A stretch of DNA of 64,000 nt from Pseudomonas sp. Os17 (lineage in GTDB: Bacteria > Pseudomonadota > Gammaproteobacteria > Pseudomonadales > Pseudomonadaceae), in assembly GCF_001547895.1 (NCBI RefSeq), contig NZ_AP014627.1:499501-563500 (forward strand), in the 5' to 3' direction. Positions within the stretch are counted from its first letter, which is position 1; every line of letters starts with the position of its first letter. The position numbers and the translations under genes were made by a program. Under the pieces are notes generated by a model. That model saw only the letters and a list, made by a program, of their open reading frames with translations. It ran no database searches and was not told where the DNA came from. Shown here piece after piece: positions 42,787 to 51,292 of this stretch.

Positions 42787-44059
42787 TCAGGCCTGGCGCA
42801 GCGCCTGATCGAGGTCCTCGAGCAGGTCTTCGATGGCTTCGATGCCCACCGAGAGACGGATCATCTCCGGTTTGACCCCGGCCTTGGCCTGCTCTTCTTC
42901 GTTCATCTGCCGGTGGGTGGTGGAGGCCGGGTGGCAGGCCAGGGACTTGGCGTCGCCGATGTTCACCAGGCGCTTGAAGATCTGCAGGGCGTCGTAGAAG
43001 CGCACGCCCGCGGCGTAGCCGCCCTTGAGACCGAAGGACAGGATCGCCGACGGCTTGCCCTGCATGTACTTGCGCGCCAGTTCATGGTGCGGGTGATCGG
43101 GCAGGCCGGCGTAGCTGACCCAGGCCACCAGCGGGTGATCCTTGAGGAACTGCGCGACCTTGATGGCGTTGTCGGTGTGGCGCTCCATGCGCAGGGCCAG
43201 GGTTTCCAGGCCTTGCAGCAGGAGGAAGGCGTTCATCGGCGCCAGCGCCGCGCCGGTGTTGCGCAGCGGCACGGTGCGGGCCCGGGCGATAAAGGCCGCC
43301 GGGCCGAAATTTTTCGGTGTAGACCACACCGTGGTAGGCCGGCTCCGGGGTATTGAGGCTGGCGAATTTCTGCGGATGCTCGGCCCAGGGGAAGTTGCCG
43401 CTGTCGACGATCACCCCGCCCAGGGAGTTGCCATGGCCGCCGACGTACTTGGTCACCGAGTGCACCACGATGTCGGCGCCGAACTGGATCGGCTTGCACA
43501 GGATCGGCGTGGCCACGGTGTTGTCCACCATCAGCGGCACGTTGCGGGCGTGGGCGGCCTGGGCCAGTCCCTCGATGTCGACGATGTTGCCCGCCGGGTT
43601 GCCGATGCTCTCGCAGTACACCAGCTTGGTCTTGTCGTCGATCAGCTCGGCGATGGCCTCTGGCGAATCGTCCCGGGCGAAACGCACTTCGACGCCGAAG
43701 CTGGGCAGCAGGTGGGCGAACAGGGTGTAGGTGCCGCCATACAGCTGCGGGGTGGAAACAACGTTGTCGCCGGCCTGGGTCAGGGTCTGGATCGCGTAGT
43801 GGATCGCGGCGCTGCCGGCGGCCACCGCCAGCCCGGCGATCCCGCCTTCCAGAGCGGCCATGCGCTGCTCCAGCACATCGTTGGTGGGGTTCATGATGCG
43901 GGTATAGATGTTGCCGGGCACATCCAGGTTGAACAGGTCGGCACCGTGCTGGGCGTTGTCGAACTCGAAGGCGACGTTCTGGTAGATGGGCACGGCCACG
44001 GCCTTGGTGGTCGGGTCCGACTTGAATCCATGGTGCAGCGCAATCGTTGCGTCTTTCAT
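42787..44059 (-). pseudogene. metY: O-acetylhomoserine (thiol)-lyase MetY, interrupted by a one-base frameshift
   Basis: The two halves of a PLP-dependent Cys/Met-metabolism enzyme lie in different frames. The first half starts at ATG 44059 (MKDATIALHHGFKSDP) and runs through the PLP-lysine region HSVTKYVGGHGNSLGG to VVYTEKF. The second half continues with FGPAAFIARARTVPLRNTGAAL to the C-terminus at 42787. Joining them needs removal of one base at about 43306-43308, where the plus strand reads CCGAAATTTTTCGG and CCGAATTTTTCGG would restore the frame. Restored length is about 423 residues, normal for MetY. Everything else looks intact, so this is either a very recent mutation or a sequencing error. 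Confidence 0.85.
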
Positions 44060-44170
44060 AAATCCTCGACTCAGTAGCAATCCGTTTATGAGCACAGCCA
44101 GGCAGGTCGTGTGCCCGCGCAGCAGTCAGTGGTCCCGTGTGTCTGAGTCGCCAGCAACCGCTTGATGTGC

Positions 44171-44281: not shown

Positions 44282-45706
44282 TCAGCGTGGCTGTGACCAG
44301 CCTTGGGAGCGCTTGACCGCGGCGCTGAAGGTGCGGCGCCAGGCGTCTGCCGTGGCCCGGTCGATGCGCGGGTGGTAGTCGGTGCGGGTGTTGTCCAGCT
44401 CGGGCAGCTCCAGGCCCAGGCCGCGGGCAGCCAGGGCGGCGCAGCCCAGGGCGGTGAGTTCGTCGAAGCGCTGGGTGACGATGGTGCGCTGCAGGATGTC
44501 GGCGAGAAACTGGGCGAAGTACGGGCTGCGGGCCAGCCCGCCGTCGATCGATAGCTGGTCGGTGACGCTGAGGTGATCGTCCATCGCGGTGATGACTTCG
44601 GCGCTGCGCAGGGCCACGCCTTCCAGTACCGCCTGGCACAGGTCCTGGCGGCTGGTGGCGGCGTTCATGCCGATCCACACCGCCCCGGCACTGCGGTCCC
44701 AGTGCGGGCAGGCGAGCCCGGACAAGGCCGGGACGAAGGCCAGCTCACGGGAGATCGCCGGAGGCTGGTCAAAGGCAGCCAGCTCCGAAAAATCACTGAA
44801 CAGCCCCAGCCGCCCGGCCCACTCCACCGCGGCGCTGGCGTCATAGACGCCACCGTCCATGGCATACACCGGTTGGCCGTCGGCCTGCCAGGCGACGGTG
44901 GCCAGCAGGCCTTTTTCCGGGGCGCGGATGATCTGCTCGCCCGTGACCGTCAGGGCAAAGGCGCCGGTGCCGAAGGTGATCTTGGCATCCCCCGGTTTGC
45001 GGCAGCCGTGGCCGTAGAGCGAGGCTTGCTGGTCAACCACCGAAGCGCTGATGGGGGTCTGGCCGATGCGCCCGAAGTCGCCGACCGTGGCGCGGATTTG
45101 CGGCAGGGCCTGCAAGGGCACGCCAAACAGTGCGCAGAGTTCCGGGTCCCACTGGCCGCTGGCGAGGTTCATCAGCGAGGTGCGCGAGGCGGTGGTGATG
45201 TCGGTGGCATAGACCCCGGCCAGGCGGTCGAGGAAGTAGGCATCGGTGGTGCCCAGGCGCAGGCGGCCGGCGCTCAGGGCTGCTTGCGCCTCTGGCAGGT
45301 TTTCCACGATCCAGGCCAGCTTGCTGGCGGAAAAATAGGCGTCCAGGGGCAGCCCGGCGCGTTCCAGGGTCAGGGCTTCGGCGCCATTGGCCCGCAGTTC
45401 TTCGATGCGTGCGGCGCTGCGGTTGTCCTGCCAGACGATCACCGGGGACAGCGGTGCGCCACTGATGGCGTCCCAGGCCAGGCAGCTTTCACCCTGGTTG
45501 GCCAGGCCGATGGCGTCGACCCGGCCGGTGGCTTCCAGGCAGCGTTGCAGGTTGGCCAGCAGTTCCAGCGGGTCGTGCTCGACCCAGCCCGGACGCGGGT
45601 GGTGCTGCTGGTGGCGCAGCGCCAGTTGGATGTCGGCACGGCCTTGCATGTCCACGACCAGTACGCGGGTGCTGGTGGTGCCCTGGTCAAGTGCGGCTAT
45701 TCGCAT
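44282..45706 (-). CDS. FGGY-family carbohydrate/polyol kinase
   Basis: A 474-residue sugar kinase of the glycerol kinase/xylulokinase superfamily. The first phosphate motif is LDQGTTSTR (residues 6-14), the substrate region has VIVWQDNRSA, and the adenosine/phosphate-2 region has ITFGTGAFAL and the late IDGGLARSPYFAQFLADIL. True glycerol kinases typically have WQCRRT where this protein has WQDNRS, so the substrate may be a different polyol. It lies 27 bp downstream of an FAD oxidoreductase gene and ends a three-gene unit with two flavoproteins. Inferred role: phosphorylating the compound taken up by the neighbouring EutH-type permease. Confidence 0.87.
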   Translation of the reverse strand: MRIAALDQGTTSTRVLVVDMQGRADIQLALRHQQHHPRPGWVEHDPLELLANLQRCLEATGRVDAIGLANQGESCLAWDAISGAPLSPVIVWQDNRSAARIEELRANGAEALTLERAGLPLDAYFSASKLAWIVENLPEAQAALSAGRLRLGTTDAYFLDRLAGVYATDITTASRTSLMNLASGQWDPELCALFGVPLQALPQIRATVGDFGRIGQTPISASVVDQQASLYGHGCRKPGDAKITFGTGAFALTVTGEQIIRAPEKGLLATVAWQADGQPVYAMDGGVYDASAAVEWAGRLGLFSDFSELAAFDQPPAISRELAFVPALSGLACPHWDRSAGAVWIGMNAATSRQDLCQAVLEGVALRSAEVITAMDDHLSVTDQLSIDGGLARSPYFAQFLADILQRTIVTQRFDELTALGCAALAARGLGLELPELDNTRTDYHPRIDRATADAWRRTFSAAVKRSQGWSQPR

Positions 45707-45733
45707 GGTCTTTTCTCTTGTTGTGGGACGGGC

Positions 45734-46966
45734 CTAGTCGATGCAGATGTCCAGTTGGTCGAGGTGTTCCGGCAGTTGCAGTTCCTTGAGGGGAATCAGC
45801 AGGCGCCGTTCCGGCAGTGCCGAGACCGGGCGGCTCCAGAGGTCCAGGCCCTGGGCGCGGACCCGCAAGGTGCCACTGACCGCCCGGCTGACCCGCAGTT
45901 GGATGTGCCGCAGGCCCGCAAGCTCGCCGCGCACCAGCCTGCTCGGTACGCCGAGCTTGATCGGCTCTGCGTATTTCAGGGTCAGCGCGTCATGCGGGGC
46001 GGGTAGTTGGCCGCACAGGGCCAGGGCCATCAGGCTGCCGATGCGCCGCCCTTCACGGTACGACCAGCCGGCGGTCTCGATCGGCCGCAGCAGGTTGCCG
46101 GCGGCGAAGTAGGCCGGGTCCGAGCAGCGCCCGTACTGGTCGATCTTCGGCCCGCCGCTACCGCTGTCCAGTTGCAGGTGGCTCTGGCGCACCAGGCTCG
46201 ATTCCGGGGTGAACTGGCCCGTGAGCAGCACGCCGTCGCAGGCAATCTCGCGCAGCTGACCGTCGGCCAGGCGCACCTGGGCCGATTCCACCCGGCCGGT
46301 GCCATTGATTGCCAGCAGTTGCGCGCCGAAATGCATGGGGATGCCCAGCAAGCGTGGAAACAGCGACAGCGGCCAGCGTGCGGTTGCCCGGGTGTTGGCT
46401 TCGAGCACCGCCACCGGGCGGATTCCGGCGCGCCGGCAACTGAGCACGGCGGACAGGCTGACCAGCTCGGTGCCGACGATCAGCGGCCGCTCAAAGGGCT
46501 TGAGGTGCTGCATATAAAGGAAGTTCTGCAACGCTCCGGTGTTGATCACGCCCACCGGGCGGTCGCCGGACAGCAGGCGTGCCGAGCGTGGGGTTTCCCG
46601 GGCGCCGGTGGCGATCAGGACCTTTTGTGCCTGGATCTGCCGCGGCCCGTCGGGGCTGGCCAGGCGCAACAGGCCGCCGGGTTCCAGGCTGACCACGGTG
46701 TGGCGCAGCAGCACGACCACGCCGGCCTGCAACGCGGCCTCGACATTGCGCCGAGCGTAGGCCGGGCCACTGAGAACACGCTGGTATTCACCCATGCCGA
46801 AGGGCGGGTGAGCGCAGTGCCGGGGAATGCCGCCGGCCTCGCTTTCACGCTCGATGACAATCACCGGGCCGATGCCCTGGCGCCGCAGTTCAATGGCTGC
46901 CGCGAGGCCCGCCGGGCCGCTGCCGATAATGGCCGCTTCGGCCTGAAGAAGTTCAGTGCTGTTCAT
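45734..46966 (-). CDS. FAD/NAD-dependent oxidoreductase, partner of the GlpA-like dehydrogenase
   Basis: A 410-residue flavoprotein with two dinucleotide-binding folds. The FAD loop is IIGSGPAGLAAAIELRRQG (residues 13-31), followed by GGIPRHCAHPPFGMG, a segment also found in the accessory flavoproteins that accompany glycerol-3-phosphate dehydrogenases and in HcnB/opine-oxidase-like subunits. The second site reads IVGTELVSLSAVLSCRRAG, and the flavin segment is YFAAGNLLRPIETAGWS. ATG 46966 is preferred; it overlaps the dehydrogenase gene by 14 nt, which implies a two-subunit enzyme. Substrate unknown. Confidence 0.85.
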   Translation of the reverse strand: MNSTELLQAEAAIIGSGPAGLAAAIELRRQGIGPVIVIERESEAGGIPRHCAHPPFGMGEYQRVLSGPAYARRNVEAALQAGVVVLLRHTVVSLEPGGLLRLASPDGPRQIQAQKVLIATGARETPRSARLLSGDRPVGVINTGALQNFLYMQHLKPFERPLIVGTELVSLSAVLSCRRAGIRPVAVLEANTRATARWPLSLFPRLLGIPMHFGAQLLAINGTGRVESAQVRLADGQLREIACDGVLLTGQFTPESSLVRQSHLQLDSGSGGPKIDQYGRCSDPAYFAAGNLLRPIETAGWSYREGRRIGSLMALALCGQLPAPHDALTLKYAEPIKLGVPSRLVRGELAGLRHIQLRVSRAVSGTLRVRAQGLDLWSRPVSALPERRLLIPLKELQLPEHLDQLDICID

Positions 46967-48359
46967 GGCAACGACCTGTGGCAAGTGGGACGGCCAGCTG
47001 GCTGGCACTGAGTTCGGCGACCTGGGCCGAGCAATAGAAACCCTGGCAGCGTCCCATGCAGGCGCGGGTGCGACGTTTGAGCCCGCCCAGATCGCCAGGG
47101 GGCAGGGGGCTGTGCAAGGCGCTCTCGATTTCGCGACGGGTCACCAGTTCGCAATGGCAGACGATTTCGCCATAGCCGGGGCGTTGCCAGTCACGGGGCA
47201 AGTGCTCCGCGAGGTTGGGCATCTGCGGCCAGACCGGCTCCCGCACCGGATGGTGCTGGCGGCGCTGGCTGTACAGGCCATAGACGTGCCGGGCAATGCC
47301 CAGGGCGGCGGTGAGCCCGGTGGAGCGGATGCCGCCGACGGTGATCCAGTGCCGGGAGTGGTCGGCCTGGATCCGGTATTCCTTCTTTTCGCTGGCGGGG
47401 CGCAGCCCGGCGTAGGTGGCGGTGACCGGCATCCCCGCGAGGGCGGGAATCCGCTCCACGGCGGCGTCGATCAGGCTTTGCAGGGTCGGGCCGTCGAGCC
47501 CGGCATGCACCCGGTCTTCCTGTTCTTCGGCGGTGGGCCCCACCAGCAGGTTGCCGTAGACGGTGCGGGTCAGAACGATGCCCTTGGTGCGTTCGTTGGG
47601 CACCGGCAGGACGATGCGCTCCAGCAGTTTGGTCGCGGCCTTGTCGAAGACCACGAACTGGCCCTTGCGCGGCATGATGCGAAATTCGCTGTGGCCCAGC
47701 AGGTTGTGCTCCAGGGTGTCGCCGAACAGCCCGGCGCAGTTGATCACCTGGGCGCTGCGCAAGGTGCCCTGGTTGGTATGCAGGGTCCAGGCGTCACCGT
47801 CGAACTGGCCTTGCTGCACCTCGCACTGCAACTGCACCCGGGCACCGTGGGCCATGGCCTGTTGCAGGTAGCCCAGGGGCGCGGACCAGGGGTCGATCAG
47901 GTGTTCGTCGGGCACCAGCACTGCGCCCACGGCGTGATTGGCCAGATGCGGTTCAAGGGCGAGGATCTCGCTGCGTTCCAACAGGCGCGCATTGTCGACC
48001 CCATTGGCCTGGGCCTGGGCGAGGATCCCCGGCAGCTTGGCCTGGTCCTCGGCGTTCCAGGCCACCACCAGTGCCCCGCACTTGAGCAGCGGCAGGTTCA
48101 TCGTCGAGTGAATTTCCAGGTATTCCTGGTAGCCGGCCTGCATGCACTGCAATTCCAGGCTGTCACTGGGGGCATCGAAGCCGGTGTGCAGGATGGCGCT
48201 GTTGGCCTTGCTGGCGCCGGAAAGAATGTCGCTGCCCTTTTCCAGCAGCACCACCCGTGCGCCTTCCAGGGCAAAGCGCCGGGCCATGGCGCAACCGACG
48301 ACCCCGCCACCGACGACGGCCACATCGAAAGTCACATTGTTCGGATAAAGTTCGGTCAT
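46953..48359 (-). CDS. GlpA-like FAD-dependent dehydrogenase with a C-terminal [2Fe-2S] domain
   Basis: A 468-residue protein. Residues 10-370 form a DAO-type flavin domain with VAVVGGGVVGCAMARRFALEG and the conserved SGASKANSAILHTGFDA. The end carries a BFD-like iron-sulphur domain with Cys pairs CHC and CMGRCQGFYC. This layout is that of GlpA-type sn-glycerol-3-phosphate dehydrogenases that work with a second flavoprotein. The nearby kinase supports a phosphorylated polyol as substrate. ATG 48359 is the last good start before the flavin motif. It is the first gene of the unit and lies 158 bp after the regulator stop. Confidence 0.88.
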   Translation of the reverse strand: MTELYPNNVTFDVAVVGGGVVGCAMARRFALEGARVVLLEKGSDILSGASKANSAILHTGFDAPSDSLELQCMQAGYQEYLEIHSTMNLPLLKCGALVVAWNAEDQAKLPGILAQAQANGVDNARLLERSEILALEPHLANHAVGAVLVPDEHLIDPWSAPLGYLQQAMAHGARVQLQCEVQQGQFDGDAWTLHTNQGTLRSAQVINCAGLFGDTLEHNLLGHSEFRIMPRKGQFVVFDKAATKLLERIVLPVPNERTKGIVLTRTVYGNLLVGPTAEEQEDRVHAGLDGPTLQSLIDAAVERIPALAGMPVTATYAGLRPASEKKEYRIQADHSRHWITVGGIRSTGLTAALGIARHVYGLYSQRRQHHPVREPVWPQMPNLAEHLPRDWQRPGYGEIVCHCELVTRREIESALHSPLPPGDLGGLKRRTRACMGRCQGFYCSAQVAELSASQLAVPLATGRCHEQH

Positions 48360-48445
48360 ATAAATGCCTGTTTCCTGCGGTAACACCCAAGGATCTGTGC
48401 AGGAATCAAAGCATAATGCGCGCCATATTTGTTGTTTTTATTTTC

Positions 48446-48466
48446 TATTCGGTCATTTATCGGTCG
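48446..48466. promoter_or_regulatory. tandem TCGGTCA-type sites upstream of the dehydrogenase gene
   Basis: TCGGTCA at 48449-48455 and TCGGTCG at 48460-48466 form a direct repeat spaced 11 bp, about one helical turn, in an AT-rich stretch (TATTCGGTCATTTATCGGTC). The same heptamer appears in the divergent region around the permease promoter, so it may be the operator of the DeoR-type regulator. Confidence 0.5.
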
Positions 48467-48517
48467 ATATACTGTGGTTTTTGCTGTGGAAAACTATTTC
48501 CTGCAATAGCCCGGGGC

Positions 48518-49282
48518 TCAGGGCTGTGCCACGACATGCACGTCCACGCCGGCCTTCTCCAGTGCGGCCAGCAGCTCGGCACCGGGCTGGCGATCGATCA
48601 CCAGGCGGTCGATGCGCTCCAGCGGGAATACCTTGAACAGGCCACGGCGTTCCAGCTTCGATGAGTCGGCGATGACCGTCAGTTGGCGGGCCTGGGCAAT
48701 CATCGCGCGGGCCACTTCGGCTTCTTCGATGGAGAAATCCATGGCGCCGTCTTCATTCAGTGCACCGATGGTGATCACGGCATGCTCGGCGTTGAAGCGG
48801 GTGATCTGCTCCAGGGCCAGGGTGCCGACGTTCTGGGTCGAGTCGGGGCGATATTCGCCACCGATCATGAACACCCGGTTGCCCGATTCGCCAATGCAGC
48901 CGGCGATCGGCAGGGAGTTGGTGATGACCGTCAGGCGCGTGTGCTGCGCCAGTTCGCGAGCGAAGAACAGGGTGGTGGTGCCGGTATCGATGAAGATGCT
49001 GTCACCGGCGCAGAACAGGCCGGCGGCGTAGCGGGCGAGGGCGCGTTTCTCTACCGCATGTTCGTTCATGCGGGTCTGGAAGGTGTTTTCGTGCTCGCCG
49101 GTCGGTGGTAGCGCCGCACCGCCGTGGAACTTGGTGACCAGGCCGCTTTCCGCCAGTTCGCTGAGGTCGCGGCGGATGGTTTCCTGGGAGGTGGCGGTGA
49201 TGCGCGCCAGCTCTTCCACGGAGATCCGCTCGCGCTGGCGCAGGAGTTCGAGAATGTGCTGTCGTCGTTCGTTGGGGCGCAT
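48518..49282 (-). CDS. DeoR/GlpR-family transcriptional regulator
   Basis: A 254-residue DeoR-family repressor. An N-terminal winged helix-turn-helix occupies about residues 4-57 (RISVEELARITATSQETIRRDL), and the C-terminal sugar-phosphate-binding domain has DTGTTTLFFARELA and ITIGALNEDGAMDF. ATG 49282 gives the normal DeoR N-terminus. It lies between the dehydrogenase-kinase unit and the divergent permease and most likely represses both in response to a phosphorylated intermediate, as GlpR does with glycerol-3-phosphate. Confidence 0.93.
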   Translation of the reverse strand: MRPNERRQHILELLRQRERISVEELARITATSQETIRRDLSELAESGLVTKFHGGAALPPTGEHENTFQTRMNEHAVEKRALARYAAGLFCAGDSIFIDTGTTTLFFARELAQHTRLTVITNSLPIAGCIGESGNRVFMIGGEYRPDSTQNVGTLALEQITRFNAEHAVITIGALNEDGAMDFSIEEAEVARAMIAQARQLTVIADSSKLERRGLFKVFPLERIDRLVIDRQPGAELLAALEKAGVDVHVVAQP

Positions 49283-49662
49283 GGTGTTTTCCGTTAGTGG
49301 TACTTCGCCACACAAATGGGCATTTTTTGTTACTTAGGCACACTCATGACTCAGAAATGTGCGTATTCGGTCAAGTTCGCTGGAAAAGTTAAGCATTTAC
49401 TTGCACGTTTCACAATGCTCAGCAGTCATGAGGTTTCAATAGGGCTGTCGGCCTATCGGGGCAACACTGGGCGCTTTTTGTGACCGATATTTGGTTGTTT
49501 GTCTGTAAAAACCACAACTAATACACATTGTGGCACGGGATATGCCCTGTGTTTCCTCACCTGCTCCATCGCCACCTGTGCGATGGGTAACCCGTGCTGG
49601 CCTCAACAAGAACTTCCCCGGTGGGGGAACCCTATAAATGACGCTCAGAGAGATGAACCCAC
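49283..49662. promoter_or_regulatory. control region between the DeoR regulator and the EutH-type permease
   Basis: This 380-bp region holds two more TCGGTCA heptamers, 49367-49373 (plus) and 49481-49487 (as TGACCGA). The sequence TGGCACGGGATATGC at 49531-49545 fits a sigma-54 promoter, with GG and GC separated by 10 bases; it would start transcription about 100 bp upstream of the permease. A hairpin CCCCGGTGGGGG lies near 49617-49628. No additional gene is evident. Confidence 0.5.
49531..49545 (+). promoter_or_regulatory. possible sigma-54 promoter of the EutH-type permease gene
   Basis: TGGCACGGGATATGC matches the -24/-12 consensus TGGCACG-N4-TTGC with one deviation and keeps the GG-N10-GC spacing. 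No enhancer-binding activator gene is adjacent; the only regulator seen is of the DeoR type, so a remote activator would be needed. Confidence 0.35.
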
Positions 49663-50898
49663 ATGGCTGAATTTGGAAACTACGTCATTTACCTGATCAT
49701 GCTGGGCGCCGTGATCGGCGCCTTGTCATCCATCATCAAGCCCGAGAGTGGCCTGGGTAAGGAGTTCGTCAACGGTATCCACTCCATCGGCCCGGTGTTC
49801 CTGGCCCAGGCCGGGATCATGGTGGCGATTCCCTACCTGTCGCAGGGCATTTCCCATGCGTTGGGACCGTTTTTCAACGCCCTGGGGTCGGATGTGTCGA
49901 TTGCGGCGCTGTCGATCATCGCCGTGGACATGGGCGGCTACCAGTTGGCCAATGCGCTGACCGCCAACCGTGATCTGTGGATCACCGCGATGCTGGTGGG
50001 CTACACCTCGGGGGCGACCATCGTCTACCTGATCCCGGTGGGCCTGACGATGCTCGAACGCAAGGACCACAAGTACCTGGCCCTGGGCGCCATGGCCGGG
50101 CTGATCAGCATTCCCTTCGCGGTATTGATGTCGCTGTTGATCATCACAGCGACCCAGCTGCCGGTGCGGGACATCGTTTCCACCAACTCCGAGGCGCTGT
50201 ATTACCTGTCCCTGGGCTTGGTCGACATGCTCAAGCTGCTGGCGCCGCTGTTCGTGTTCTGCTTCCTGCTGGCGGCGGGGCTGCGCTACCGGCCGCAGAT
50301 GATGGTCAAGGGCTTCCTGGTGTTCGGCAAGATCATGGACGCGGCGATCAAGCTGATCCTGGCGCTGAGCATCGTCGAGCACTTCACCAAGTTCTTCAGC
50401 ATCAACTTCGGCGGCTGGGGCTTCGACCCGATGTTTGCCGACGAGAAGGAGCTGTTCCGGGCCATCGAGATCGCTGGCTACATCGGCATCATGCTCGCTG
50501 GCACCTTCCCCATCTGCTACCTGTTCCAGCGCTACTGCAAGAAGCCCATGGAACTGCTGGGGCGCCAACTGAACCTGTCGAGCACCGGTGCGGCGGGCTT
50601 TGTCATGGTGTTCGCCAACATCATCGCCACCTACCACCTGTTCAAGCACATGACTGCCCGCGACAAGGTGCTGTGCGTGGCCCTCGGGGTCTGTGCCCAG
50701 GCGCTGATCGGCGACCACCTGGCGTTCACCGCTAACTTCCAGCCAAGCCTGATCCTGCCGATTCTGTTCGGCAAACTGTTCGGCGGCCTGCTGGCGGTGG
50801 CGATCGCCATTCGTATCTCGGTGCCGGCCGCCCAGCGTTATGAGCAACAAGAGCAGGAACAGGCCGCGGCCTTTGCCCTGCAACCCGCGCGGGCCTGA
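49663..50898 (+). CDS. eutH: EutH-type permease
   Basis: A 411-residue inner-membrane transporter, close in length to E. coli EutH (408), with about eleven hydrophobic helices. Shared blocks include DMGGYQLANAL, ATIVYLIPVGL, KYLALGAMAGLISIPF, KPMELLGRQLN and IGDHLAFTANFQPSLILPILFGKL. One block is altered: where E. coli EutH has ANNIPMFGMMK this protein has ANIIATYHLFK, so the substrate may differ from ethanolamine. No ethanolamine ammonia-lyase or microcompartment gene is nearby; instead there is a kinase/dehydrogenase set. ATG 49663 follows GAGAG. Confidence 0.88.
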   Translation: MAEFGNYVIYLIMLGAVIGALSSIIKPESGLGKEFVNGIHSIGPVFLAQAGIMVAIPYLSQGISHALGPFFNALGSDVSIAALSIIAVDMGGYQLANALTANRDLWITAMLVGYTSGATIVYLIPVGLTMLERKDHKYLALGAMAGLISIPFAVLMSLLIITATQLPVRDIVSTNSEALYYLSLGLVDMLKLLAPLFVFCFLLAAGLRYRPQMMVKGFLVFGKIMDAAIKLILALSIVEHFTKFFSINFGGWGFDPMFADEKELFRAIEIAGYIGIMLAGTFPICYLFQRYCKKPMELLGRQLNLSSTGAAGFVMVFANIIATYHLFKHMTARDKVLCVALGVCAQALIGDHLAFTANFQPSLILPILFGKLFGGLLAVAIAIRISVPAAQRYEQQEQEQAAAFALQPARA

Positions 50899-50935
50899 AT
50901 GGCCCGCTCCACCTCCCCATGATTTCGAGGTCACG

Positions 50936-51292
50936 ATGCGCAAGATTTTCCTCGCCTGCCCCTACAGTCACTCCGAGCCGGCCGTCATCAATGAGCGTTT
51001 TCTCAAGTGCAACCAGGTGGCGGCGCAGATACTGGAAGCCGGGCATGCCGTGTTCAGCCAGGTGAGCATGTCCCACCCCATCAACCTGTGCCTGGAAGGC
51101 AAGGACAACGCCGCCATCGGCAAGCTCTGGGCCCCGGTGGATGCGCTGTACATGGCGATGATGGAGGAGCTGATCGTGCTCGACCTGCCTGGCTGGAAGG
51201 ACAGCGGCGGAATCAAGCGCGAGATCGAGGTCTTCGAATCCTCGGGACGGCGGGTCAGCCTGTGGTCCGAGGTCAGCCACGAGTTCGCCTGA
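50936..51292 (+). CDS. DUF1937 (nucleoside 2-deoxyribosyltransferase-like) protein
   Basis: A 118-residue protein of the nucleoside deoxyribosyltransferase-like superfamily, DUF1937 type. It begins with IFLACPYSHSEPAV, then has FSQVSMSHPINL, a metal- or substrate-binding MEELIVLDLPGW strand and SGGIKREIEVFESSGR, the order of the family's active-site segments. Related enzymes cleave or transfer N-glycosidic bonds, but the activity of DUF1937 members is not established to my knowledge. It lies 37 bp after the permease gene with no terminator seen, so it probably belongs to the same transcript. Confidence 0.8.
   Translation: MRKIFLACPYSHSEPAVINERFLKCNQVAAQILEAGHAVFSQVSMSHPINLCLEGKDNAAIGKLWAPVDALYMAMMEELIVLDLPGWKDSGGIKREIEVFESSGRRVSLWSEVSHEFA

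What the first reader, a model, noticed from the sequence alone, without database searches (positions are those of the whole stretch)
44282..51292. Unfamiliar catabolic locus: EutH-type permease with FGGY kinase, GlpA-like dehydrogenase pair, DeoR regulator and DUF1937 protein
Seen: a minus-strand unit (GlpA-like flavoprotein with [2Fe-2S] domain, second flavoprotein, FGGY kinase), a DeoR repressor, and a divergent EutH-family transporter with a deoxyribosyltransferase-like DUF1937 protein. Known: EutH normally serves ethanolamine with EutBC; GlpA/B-type flavoproteins oxidise glycerol-3-phosphate; FGGY kinases phosphorylate polyols. Here no ethanolamine lyase is present, the kinase has WQDNRS where glycerol kinase has WQCRRT, and the EutH block ANNIPMF is changed to ANIIATY. 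Inference: uptake, phosphorylation and oxidation of an unknown small polyol or amino-alcohol (a glycerol, serinol or erythritol relative). The DUF1937 protein may act on a related N-glycoside.
Basis: partly seen in the sequence, partly recalled or inferred. Interest (0 to 1): 0.75.

Follow-up and report, generated by a model that had tools for sequence, protein, structure and literature searches.

The report
Candidate amino-alcohol catabolic gene module
A six-gene Pseudomonas locus looks like a way to eat a small amino alcohol related to ethanolamine, using a modified glycerol kinase and a glycerol-phosphate-type dehydrogenase; no description of the pathway was found, and the exact substrate is unproven.

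Summary
In detail: window 44282-51292 encodes an FGGY kinase, a second flavoprotein, a GlpA-like flavoprotein, a DeoR repressor, a divergent EutH and DUF1937. It is a conserved unit. In 119 Pseudomonas genomes the kinase occurs in 6, and strong DUF1937 hits occur in exactly those 6. The GlpA-like gene has 541 relatives (best 80 read). The kinase is not the cell's glycerol kinase: 9 of 9 genomes tested also have canonical GlpK, and every kinase row read (69 of 69; 10 of 10) has Gly where GlpK has glycerol-binding Arg83. GlpF was found beside 0 of 88 loci. Neighbours often point to ethanolamine-type substrates: EutH, a permease 62% identical to one in a eutBC locus, TRAP systems of the ethanolamine-binder (4UAB) type, EutBC, and GS-like/ALDH genes. 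Best reading: uptake, phosphorylation and flavin-linked oxidation of a small amino alcohol; serinol (to DHAP + NH3) is the most economical candidate. Main counter-evidence: in 9 of 80 loci a GpdQ-like phosphodiesterase stands in place of the kinase, which suggests plain glycerol 3-phosphate and a phospholipid head-group rival. Substrate untested.

The parts
44282..45706 (-). FGGY kinase of a group separate from canonical GlpK; Gly72 stands at the EcGlpK Arg83 position, while the E84, W103, Y135, D245, Q246 and F270 positions are kept
   Evidence: (417 bits to TIGR01311, cut-off 590); EcGlpK numbering of W103 and Q246 recalled
45734..46966 (-). second flavoprotein (Pyr_redox_2), partner of the GlpA-like protein
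   Evidence: beside glpA in 78 of 80 loci
46953..48359 (-). GlpA/GlpO-like FAD oxidoreductase with C-terminal BFD [2Fe-2S] domain
48360..48517 (.). deoR-glpA intergenic region, possible operator
   Evidence: coordinates; no operator motif shown
48518..49282 (-). DeoR-family repressor, 36% identical to the DeoR/GlpR-like protein beside the genome's canonical GlpK
49283..49662 (.). divergent control region between deoR and eutH
   Evidence: coordinates; a search for a motif shared with the glpA upstream region in 6 loci found nothing consistent
49663..50898 (+). EutH-family transporter, about 53% identical to the genome's eutBC-linked EutH
   Evidence: (NF011668, 694 bits, cut-off 575)
50936..51292 (+). 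DUF1937 protein, relative of P. aeruginosa PA1492 (PDB 1T1J), N-(deoxy)ribosyltransferase-like superfamily

Best explanation
The locus encodes uptake and catabolism of a small amino alcohol of the ethanolamine family. EutH (replaced in other species by APC permeases or an EtoX-type TRAP system) brings the cationic alcohol in. A GlpK-related kinase that lacks the glycerol-binding Arg83, which should make the pocket more acidic and friendlier to an ammonium group, phosphorylates a hydroxymethyl group. The GlpA-like/[2Fe-2S] flavoprotein with its flavoprotein partner then oxidises the phosphorylated compound at C2 and passes electrons onward. DeoR represses both arms. Most economical substrate: serinol (2-amino-1,3-propanediol), giving serinol phosphate and then DHAP + NH3, since no further enzyme would be needed. 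Shown: gene content, conservation, Gly at the Arg83 position, canonical GlpK in the same genomes, transporter neighbours. Inferred: substrate class, phosphorylation site, oxidation chemistry, product, regulation. The 0.5 is for the amino-alcohol class; serinol itself about one in three.
For: Gly at the Arg83 position in 69 of 69 kinase rows (some rows are the same locus fetched twice, so not all independent) and 10 of 10 further loci. Arg83 is one of five specificity positions of GlpK and hydrogen-bonds glycerol (PMC3245297, PMC2680290, passages). Canonical GlpK (54-100% identical to the genome's own) in 9 of 9 module genomes. GlpF, sought with the genome's own GlpF only, in 0 of 88 loci; as control it is beside canonical GlpK in 6 of 6 Pseudomonas loci but 0 of 3 other loci read at about 4.5 kb. 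Neighbours in the best 80: EutH in 18, one of them an Emcibacteraceae MAG (L111, 77%); EtoX-type TRAP in 4 (L083, L107, L110, L125; 72-81% to the G563 protein; L107 and L110 lack the kinase in the stretch held); EutB and EutC in 4 (three strains titled Salipiger bermudensis, one Thioclava). The G563 TRAP protein matches 4UAB at 5.6e-135, next best 6e-15; 4UAB/Csal_0678 binds ethanolamine (PMC12410723, passage). Of 385 genomes drawn from the class of G563 (taken to be Alphaproteobacteria; unnamed), 12 have the GlpA-like gene at E 1e-150 or better, 12 of 12 with the kinase beside it; 5 have EtoX TRAP (3 genera), 3 (one genus) an APC-GS-like-ALDH-glpA-flav2-kinase run. The permease beside the Paraburkholderia kinase (L079) is 62% identical to the one beside eutBC in G044 and 37-39% to those in G091, G052, G059. 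In G059 a EutH remnant lies beside DUF1937 while an APC permease sits by the kinase.
Against: A GpdQ-like phosphodiesterase stands in place of the kinase in 9 of 80 loci, and 0 of 80 have both. The glpA tree interleaves the two kinds (at least 5 forced changes), and at an 85% threshold only position 423 separates them, so the dehydrogenase may act on plain glycerol 3-phosphate. The glycerophosphate-oxidase active-site residues (recalled numbering) look conserved. Within about 8 kb, 12 of 61 kinase loci show none of the transporters searched for (two of them short contigs; L071 has EutH further off), and others carry Pot-like, SBP_bac_5, NMT1-type, MFS or non-EtoX TRAP systems; the TRAP protein of G771 is not EtoX-like. 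In the class draw, 4 of 12 show no amine-type gene among those tested. No background rate for these neighbours was computed. Serinol is inferred from chemistry alone; the TRIS-degrading P. hunanensis Teo1 does not grow on serinol (PMC10848231, passage; whether it has the module is unknown). The role of DUF1937 is unexplained.
Confidence: 0.5

Rival explanations
1. Phospholipid head-group salvage. The kinase (a divergent glycerol kinase) or a GpdQ-like phosphodiesterase supplies glycerol phosphate, the GlpA-like pair oxidises it to DHAP, and the neighbouring ethanolamine genes handle the other half of glycerophosphoethanolamine. EutH here simply carries ethanolamine.
For: Kinase and GpdQ-like enzyme are alternative partners of the same dehydrogenase: 61 and 9 of 80, 0 with both. 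Only the L089 enzyme was compared with solved structures (best 2dxl, 2e-37); the other eight are 49-64% identical to it; that 2dxl is GpdQ is recalled. EutBC, GS-like and EtoX genes sit beside the module in some species. The GlpA-like protein resembles type 2 glycerol-3-phosphate oxidase (201 bits, cut-off 460).
Against: Gly at the Arg83 position in every kinase read; canonical GlpK in 9 of 9 genomes; no GlpF found in 88 loci; the 6 Pseudomonas module genomes already have EutB elsewhere, and in the four eut loci read a permease lies beside it.
Confidence: 0.27
2. The substrate is another amino alcohol: 3-amino-1,2-propanediol (C2 alcohol oxidised as in glycerol 3-phosphate, giving 3-amino-2-oxopropyl phosphate), alaninol, or ethanolamine itself via phosphoethanolamine.
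For: Same transporter and Arg83 evidence as the main explanation. 3-Amino-1,2-propanediol needs no change of dehydrogenase chemistry, which fits the lack of site differences between kinase- and phosphodiesterase-linked GlpA.
Against: Products are not central metabolites and no further enzyme was seen to be conserved in the unit; EutB is present elsewhere in 7 of 9 module genomes.
Confidence: 0.15
3. Neutral small polyol or ketose (erythritol, threitol, dihydroxyacetone type); the amine-type neighbours are incidental.
For: FGGY kinases normally act on polyols and sugars (established knowledge); DeoR repressors usually sense sugar phosphates (established knowledge); many loci have no amine-type neighbour.
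Against: Repeated association with ethanolamine-type transporters and enzymes in separate lineages; no isomerase or polyol dehydrogenase was seen to recur among identified neighbours.
Confidence: 0.08

Closest known systems
Glycerol catabolism, glpFKR-glpD / glpABC
   Same: GlpK-related kinase, GlpA-like flavoprotein with [2Fe-2S] domain, DeoR/GlpR-family repressor
   Different: Kinase below the GlpK cut-off and without Arg83; second flavoprotein not recognised as GlpB in the rows shown; no GlpF found; canonical GlpK coexists
Ethanolamine utilisation with EutH and EutBC
   Same: EutH-family transporter; EutBC lies beside the module in Salipiger and Thioclava
   Different: No lyase in the window locus; EutH only about 53% identical to the eutBC-linked paralogue
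Gamma-glutamyl-ethanolamide pathway with EtoX TRAP transporter (Phaeobacter, PMC10132767, passages)
   Same: EtoX-type TRAP systems, or a GS-like ligase with an aldehyde dehydrogenase, occur beside the module in some other species
   Different: In the window there is no ligase or aldehyde dehydrogenase; kinase and GlpA-like pair are extra
P. aeruginosa PA1487-PA1492
   Same: PA1487 is listed as a putative glycerol kinase, PA1490 as a transcription factor, PA1492 is structure 1T1J, the best match of the window's DUF1937; the six locus numbers fit the window's order
   Different: Not read here as DNA; correspondence inferred from paper passages and the 1T1J match

Membership tests
Glycerol kinase GlpK (TIGR01311) | score above NCBIfam cut-off 590 | tested here: not met
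   417.4 bits
Glycerol kinase GlpK (TIGR01311) | five specificity residues R83, E84, Y135, D245, F270 | tested here: not met
   Arg83 position is Gly in 69 of 69 rows; the other four are kept in the alignment of 9 module kinases with own GlpK; positions from PMC3245297
Anaerobic G3P dehydrogenase GlpA (TIGR03377) / type 2 G3P oxidase (NF033460) | score above cut-offs 552.8 / 460 | tested here: not met
   128.6 and 201.4 bits
GlpABC | GlpB partner | tested here: inconclusive
   no GlpB model among the 25 rows shown of 38 for the second flavoprotein
EutH (NF011668, PF04346) | score above cut-off 575 / 25 | tested here: met
   694.4 and 381.6 bits
Ethanolamine utilisation locus | EutBC lyase in the locus | tested here: not met
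   none of the six genes is EutB or EutC; EutB and EutC lie elsewhere in the genome, at about 6.06 Mb of C1
EtoX/Csal_0678 TRAP binding protein (related loci only) | full-length match and the glutamate that binds the ligand | tested here: met
   G563 protein only was compared with solved structures: 5.6e-135 to 4UAB. Glu at chain position 217 is conserved in 5 of 5 proteins aligned; that this is Glu220 rests on an assumed numbering offset
DUF1937 (PF09152) | score above cut-off 23 | tested here: met
   128.8 bits
Amino-alcohol kinase activity | phosphorylates serinol or a relative | not testable with these tools
   needs enzyme assay

The most novel reading that the evidence does not exclude
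A widespread, B12-independent route for 2-amino alcohols in proteobacteria: an FGGY kinase that became an amino-alcohol kinase by losing Arg83, coupled to a GlpA-type flavoprotein pair that oxidatively deaminates the amino-alcohol phosphate (serinol phosphate to DHAP + NH3), with EutH, APC and TRAP carriers swapped freely in front of it.
Probability: 0.35. Interest if true: 0.75.

Novelty: new variant of a known kind. Interest (0 to 1): 0.6.

Why it matters
If true, it gives a function to hundreds of genes that look like glycerol kinase, GlpA and EutH, shows an FGGY kinase acting on an amine-bearing alcohol, adds a third kind of amino-alcohol catabolism beside EutBC and gamma-glutamylation, and explains why EutH occurs without the lyase. 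It also offers a one-residue signature (NQGE(S/T) for NQRET) to stop misannotation as glycerol kinase.

Tried and rejected
Shared DeoR operator: a search for 16-mers with up to 3 mismatches between the deoR-eutH gap and the glpA upstream region in 6 loci gave no consistent motif. EutH structure by sequence: no PDB match. DUF1937 function: no paper held the term DUF1937; only its superfamily is described (PMC7308715, passage). Literature on PA1487-PA1492: 12 papers listed, several of them chance uses of the code; passages read in four; no function given. Searches for a paper joining EutH or ethanolamine with such a kinase and for serinol catabolism showed none that describes this module, but some lists were capped (20 of 28; 10 of 41; 15 of 441). 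Titles and abstract starts were seen; passages were read in seven further papers. The serinol review PMC3222319 had no hit for degrad, catabol, utiliz or kinase. A search for the active-site paper of the Mycoplasma oxidase found one unrelated paper, so those residues are recalled. A plain glycerol duplicate was rejected as the lead because, but kept as a rival. A difference between kinase-linked and phosphodiesterase-linked GlpA active sites was looked for and not found. In one search the phosphodiesterase was scored only where the kinase was absent, so mutual exclusion was re-tested without that condition (0 of 80 with both). The kinase tree holds 56 module rows: five were dropped for frame length and nine loci with a kinase match had no called frame. 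Structure prediction and the search for homologous proteins were not used.
Full report
Observation. glpA and flav2 overlap by 14 bp and the kinase follows after 27 bp; eutH and DUF1937 are separated by about 35 bp; deoR lies between the two arms. The window lies in a 6.89 Mb single-contig genome, which groups with Pseudomonas: the 7-kb stretch is 98.6% identical to Pseudomonas sp. Au-Pse12 and 91.7% to P. protegens FD6.

Conservation. Of 119 genomes drawn from the genus, the kinase occurs in 6. Four of these have the same EutH at 83% identity or more; the other two (G044, G059) have an APC permease beside the kinase instead. In G059 a remnant of EutH (residues 342-387, 78% and 71%, E 1e-12) survives between deoR and DUF1937. 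DUF1937 has strong hits in exactly these 6 genomes, and weak hits in two others (G031, G068); such an overlap has a chance of about 3e-10 if placed at random, though shared descent makes that only a guide. In G032 and G052 the glpA-flav2-kinase operon is turned round relative to deoR, yet the unit stays together.

Wider distribution. A scan of one genome per species with the GlpA-like alignment gave 541 relatives; the best 80 were kept, so counts from them lean to close relatives. Of these 80, 78 have flav2, 61 the kinase and 57 a DeoR above 40% identity in the stretch held; several are short contigs. The record titles are mostly alpha- and gammaproteobacteria, with some from Desulfobacterota-like and other groups.

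The kinase is not GlpK. It scores 417 bits against a 590 cut-off. In a tree of 56 module kinases, 6 canonical GlpKs and L044, a 100/100 branch sets the module kinases apart (the program warns of long branches, and the root is for drawing only). Gly stands at the Arg83 position in 69 of 69 rows and 10 of 10 more, while own GlpK and L044 have Arg. Arg83 is one of five GlpK specificity positions (PMC3245297, passage) and in the Plasmodium enzyme contacts the glycerol hydroxyls and makes a salt bridge to Glu306 (PMC2680290, passage). Losing an arginine beside kept acids would favour a cationic substrate; this is inference. The 9 module genomes examined also carry a GlpK 54-100% identical to the genome's own.

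What the neighbours carry. In the best 80: EutH 18, APC1-type permease 5, APC2-type 6, EtoX-type TRAP 4, EutB and EutC 4, GS-like 1; 35 of 80 have at least one of EutH, APC1/2, EtoX or EutB, 45 do not. Of the four EtoX loci, L107 and L110 have no kinase in the stretch held. Paraburkholderia (L079) has another amino-acid-type permease next to the kinase, 62% identical to the one in the eutBC locus of G044. The G563 TRAP binding protein is far closer to the ethanolamine binder 4UAB than to any other solved structure, and the presumed ligand glutamate is conserved in 5 of 5 aligned. GlpF: 0 of 88 loci; as control, 6 of 6 Pseudomonas canonical GlpK loci have it but 0 of 3 from other groups, so its absence says less outside Pseudomonas. 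To avoid the bias of the best-80 list, 385 genomes drawn evenly from the class of G563 were searched: 12 have the GlpA-like gene at E 1e-150 or better, 12 of 12 with the kinase (10 read; G492 and G563). Five have EtoX TRAP beside deoR (3 genera), three of one genus have APC-GS-like-ALDH-glpA-flav2-kinase on one strand, and four show no amine-type gene among those tested. No background rate for such neighbours was computed.

Against the reading. Nine of 80 loci lack the kinase and have a calcineurin-like phosphoesterase; 0 of 80 have both, and 10 have neither. The L089 enzyme's best solved match is 2dxl (E 2e-37; GpdQ by recall). Seven of the nine also have Pot-like ABC matches, in L084 only to the ATPase. 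The glpA tree needs at least 5 changes between the two kinds, though the labels are clustered, and at an 85% threshold only position 423 separates them. This suggests that the dehydrogenase sees the same kind of phosphate, plausibly glycerol 3-phosphate, in both settings. It weakens the C2-amine oxidation step and raises the head-group-salvage rival. Also, 12 of 61 kinase loci show none of the transporters tested within about 8 kb, G771 has a TRAP protein unlike EtoX, and in L068 and L071 other genes lie between kinase and deoR, in L068 a GltP-like symporter.

Which amino alcohol. EutB is present elsewhere in 7 of 9 module genomes, so ethanolamine is probably already served there. Serinol is the one relative considered whose phosphate would be turned into DHAP by GlpA-type oxidation without another enzyme; 3-amino-1,2-propanediol would fit the unchanged GlpA site better but ends at a product with no visible next step. 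This choice is inference, and I put serinol itself at about one in three.

DUF1937. It belongs to the unit in Pseudomonas and recurs in Buttiauxella beside glpA-flav2-deoR with a XylB-like kinase and an MlrC-like protein. Its function is not explained.

Literature. Within the held library no paper was listed that describes this module (searches, some lists capped). PA1487, PA1490 and PA1492 are mentioned singly. Most subscription papers are not held, so prior description cannot be excluded.

Noticed in passing
window 42787-44095 (-): A MetY/Cys-Met-type PLP enzyme gene (family recalled) just downstream of the kinase is split between two reading frames, while relatives (e.g. L051, L058) have one 430-residue frame; recent loss or a sequencing error.
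   Followed up: partly
L029, L030, L032, L035 (Pseudomonas genomes G024, G003, G066, G060): A third kind of EutH (about 50% identical) lies near a LuxR-type regulator with an SDR dehydrogenase or a FAD-linked sugar-lactone-oxidase-type protein, with no EutB called nearby; EutH may serve further alcohols.
   Followed up: partly
G000:C1:6061331-6064897 (L034): The genome's eut locus holds two EutB-like genes (about 40% identical), each followed by a EutC-like stretch.
   Followed up: partly
L095 (Buttiauxella sp. A111): glpA-flav2-deoR with a different, XylB-like FGGY kinase, an MlrC/M81 protein and DUF1937: a variant that may use another substrate.
   Followed up: partly
L073, L082 (Mesorhizobium, Kaistia): Module beside a SBP_bac_5 transporter and a 753-residue protein with a dimethylformamidase-like C-terminal domain (domain read in L082 only).
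   Followed up: no
L064 (record titled Pantoea sp. Ap-967): Module with both an APC permease and EutH; its kinase groups within Pseudomonas, so the record may be misnamed or the locus transferred.
   Followed up: no
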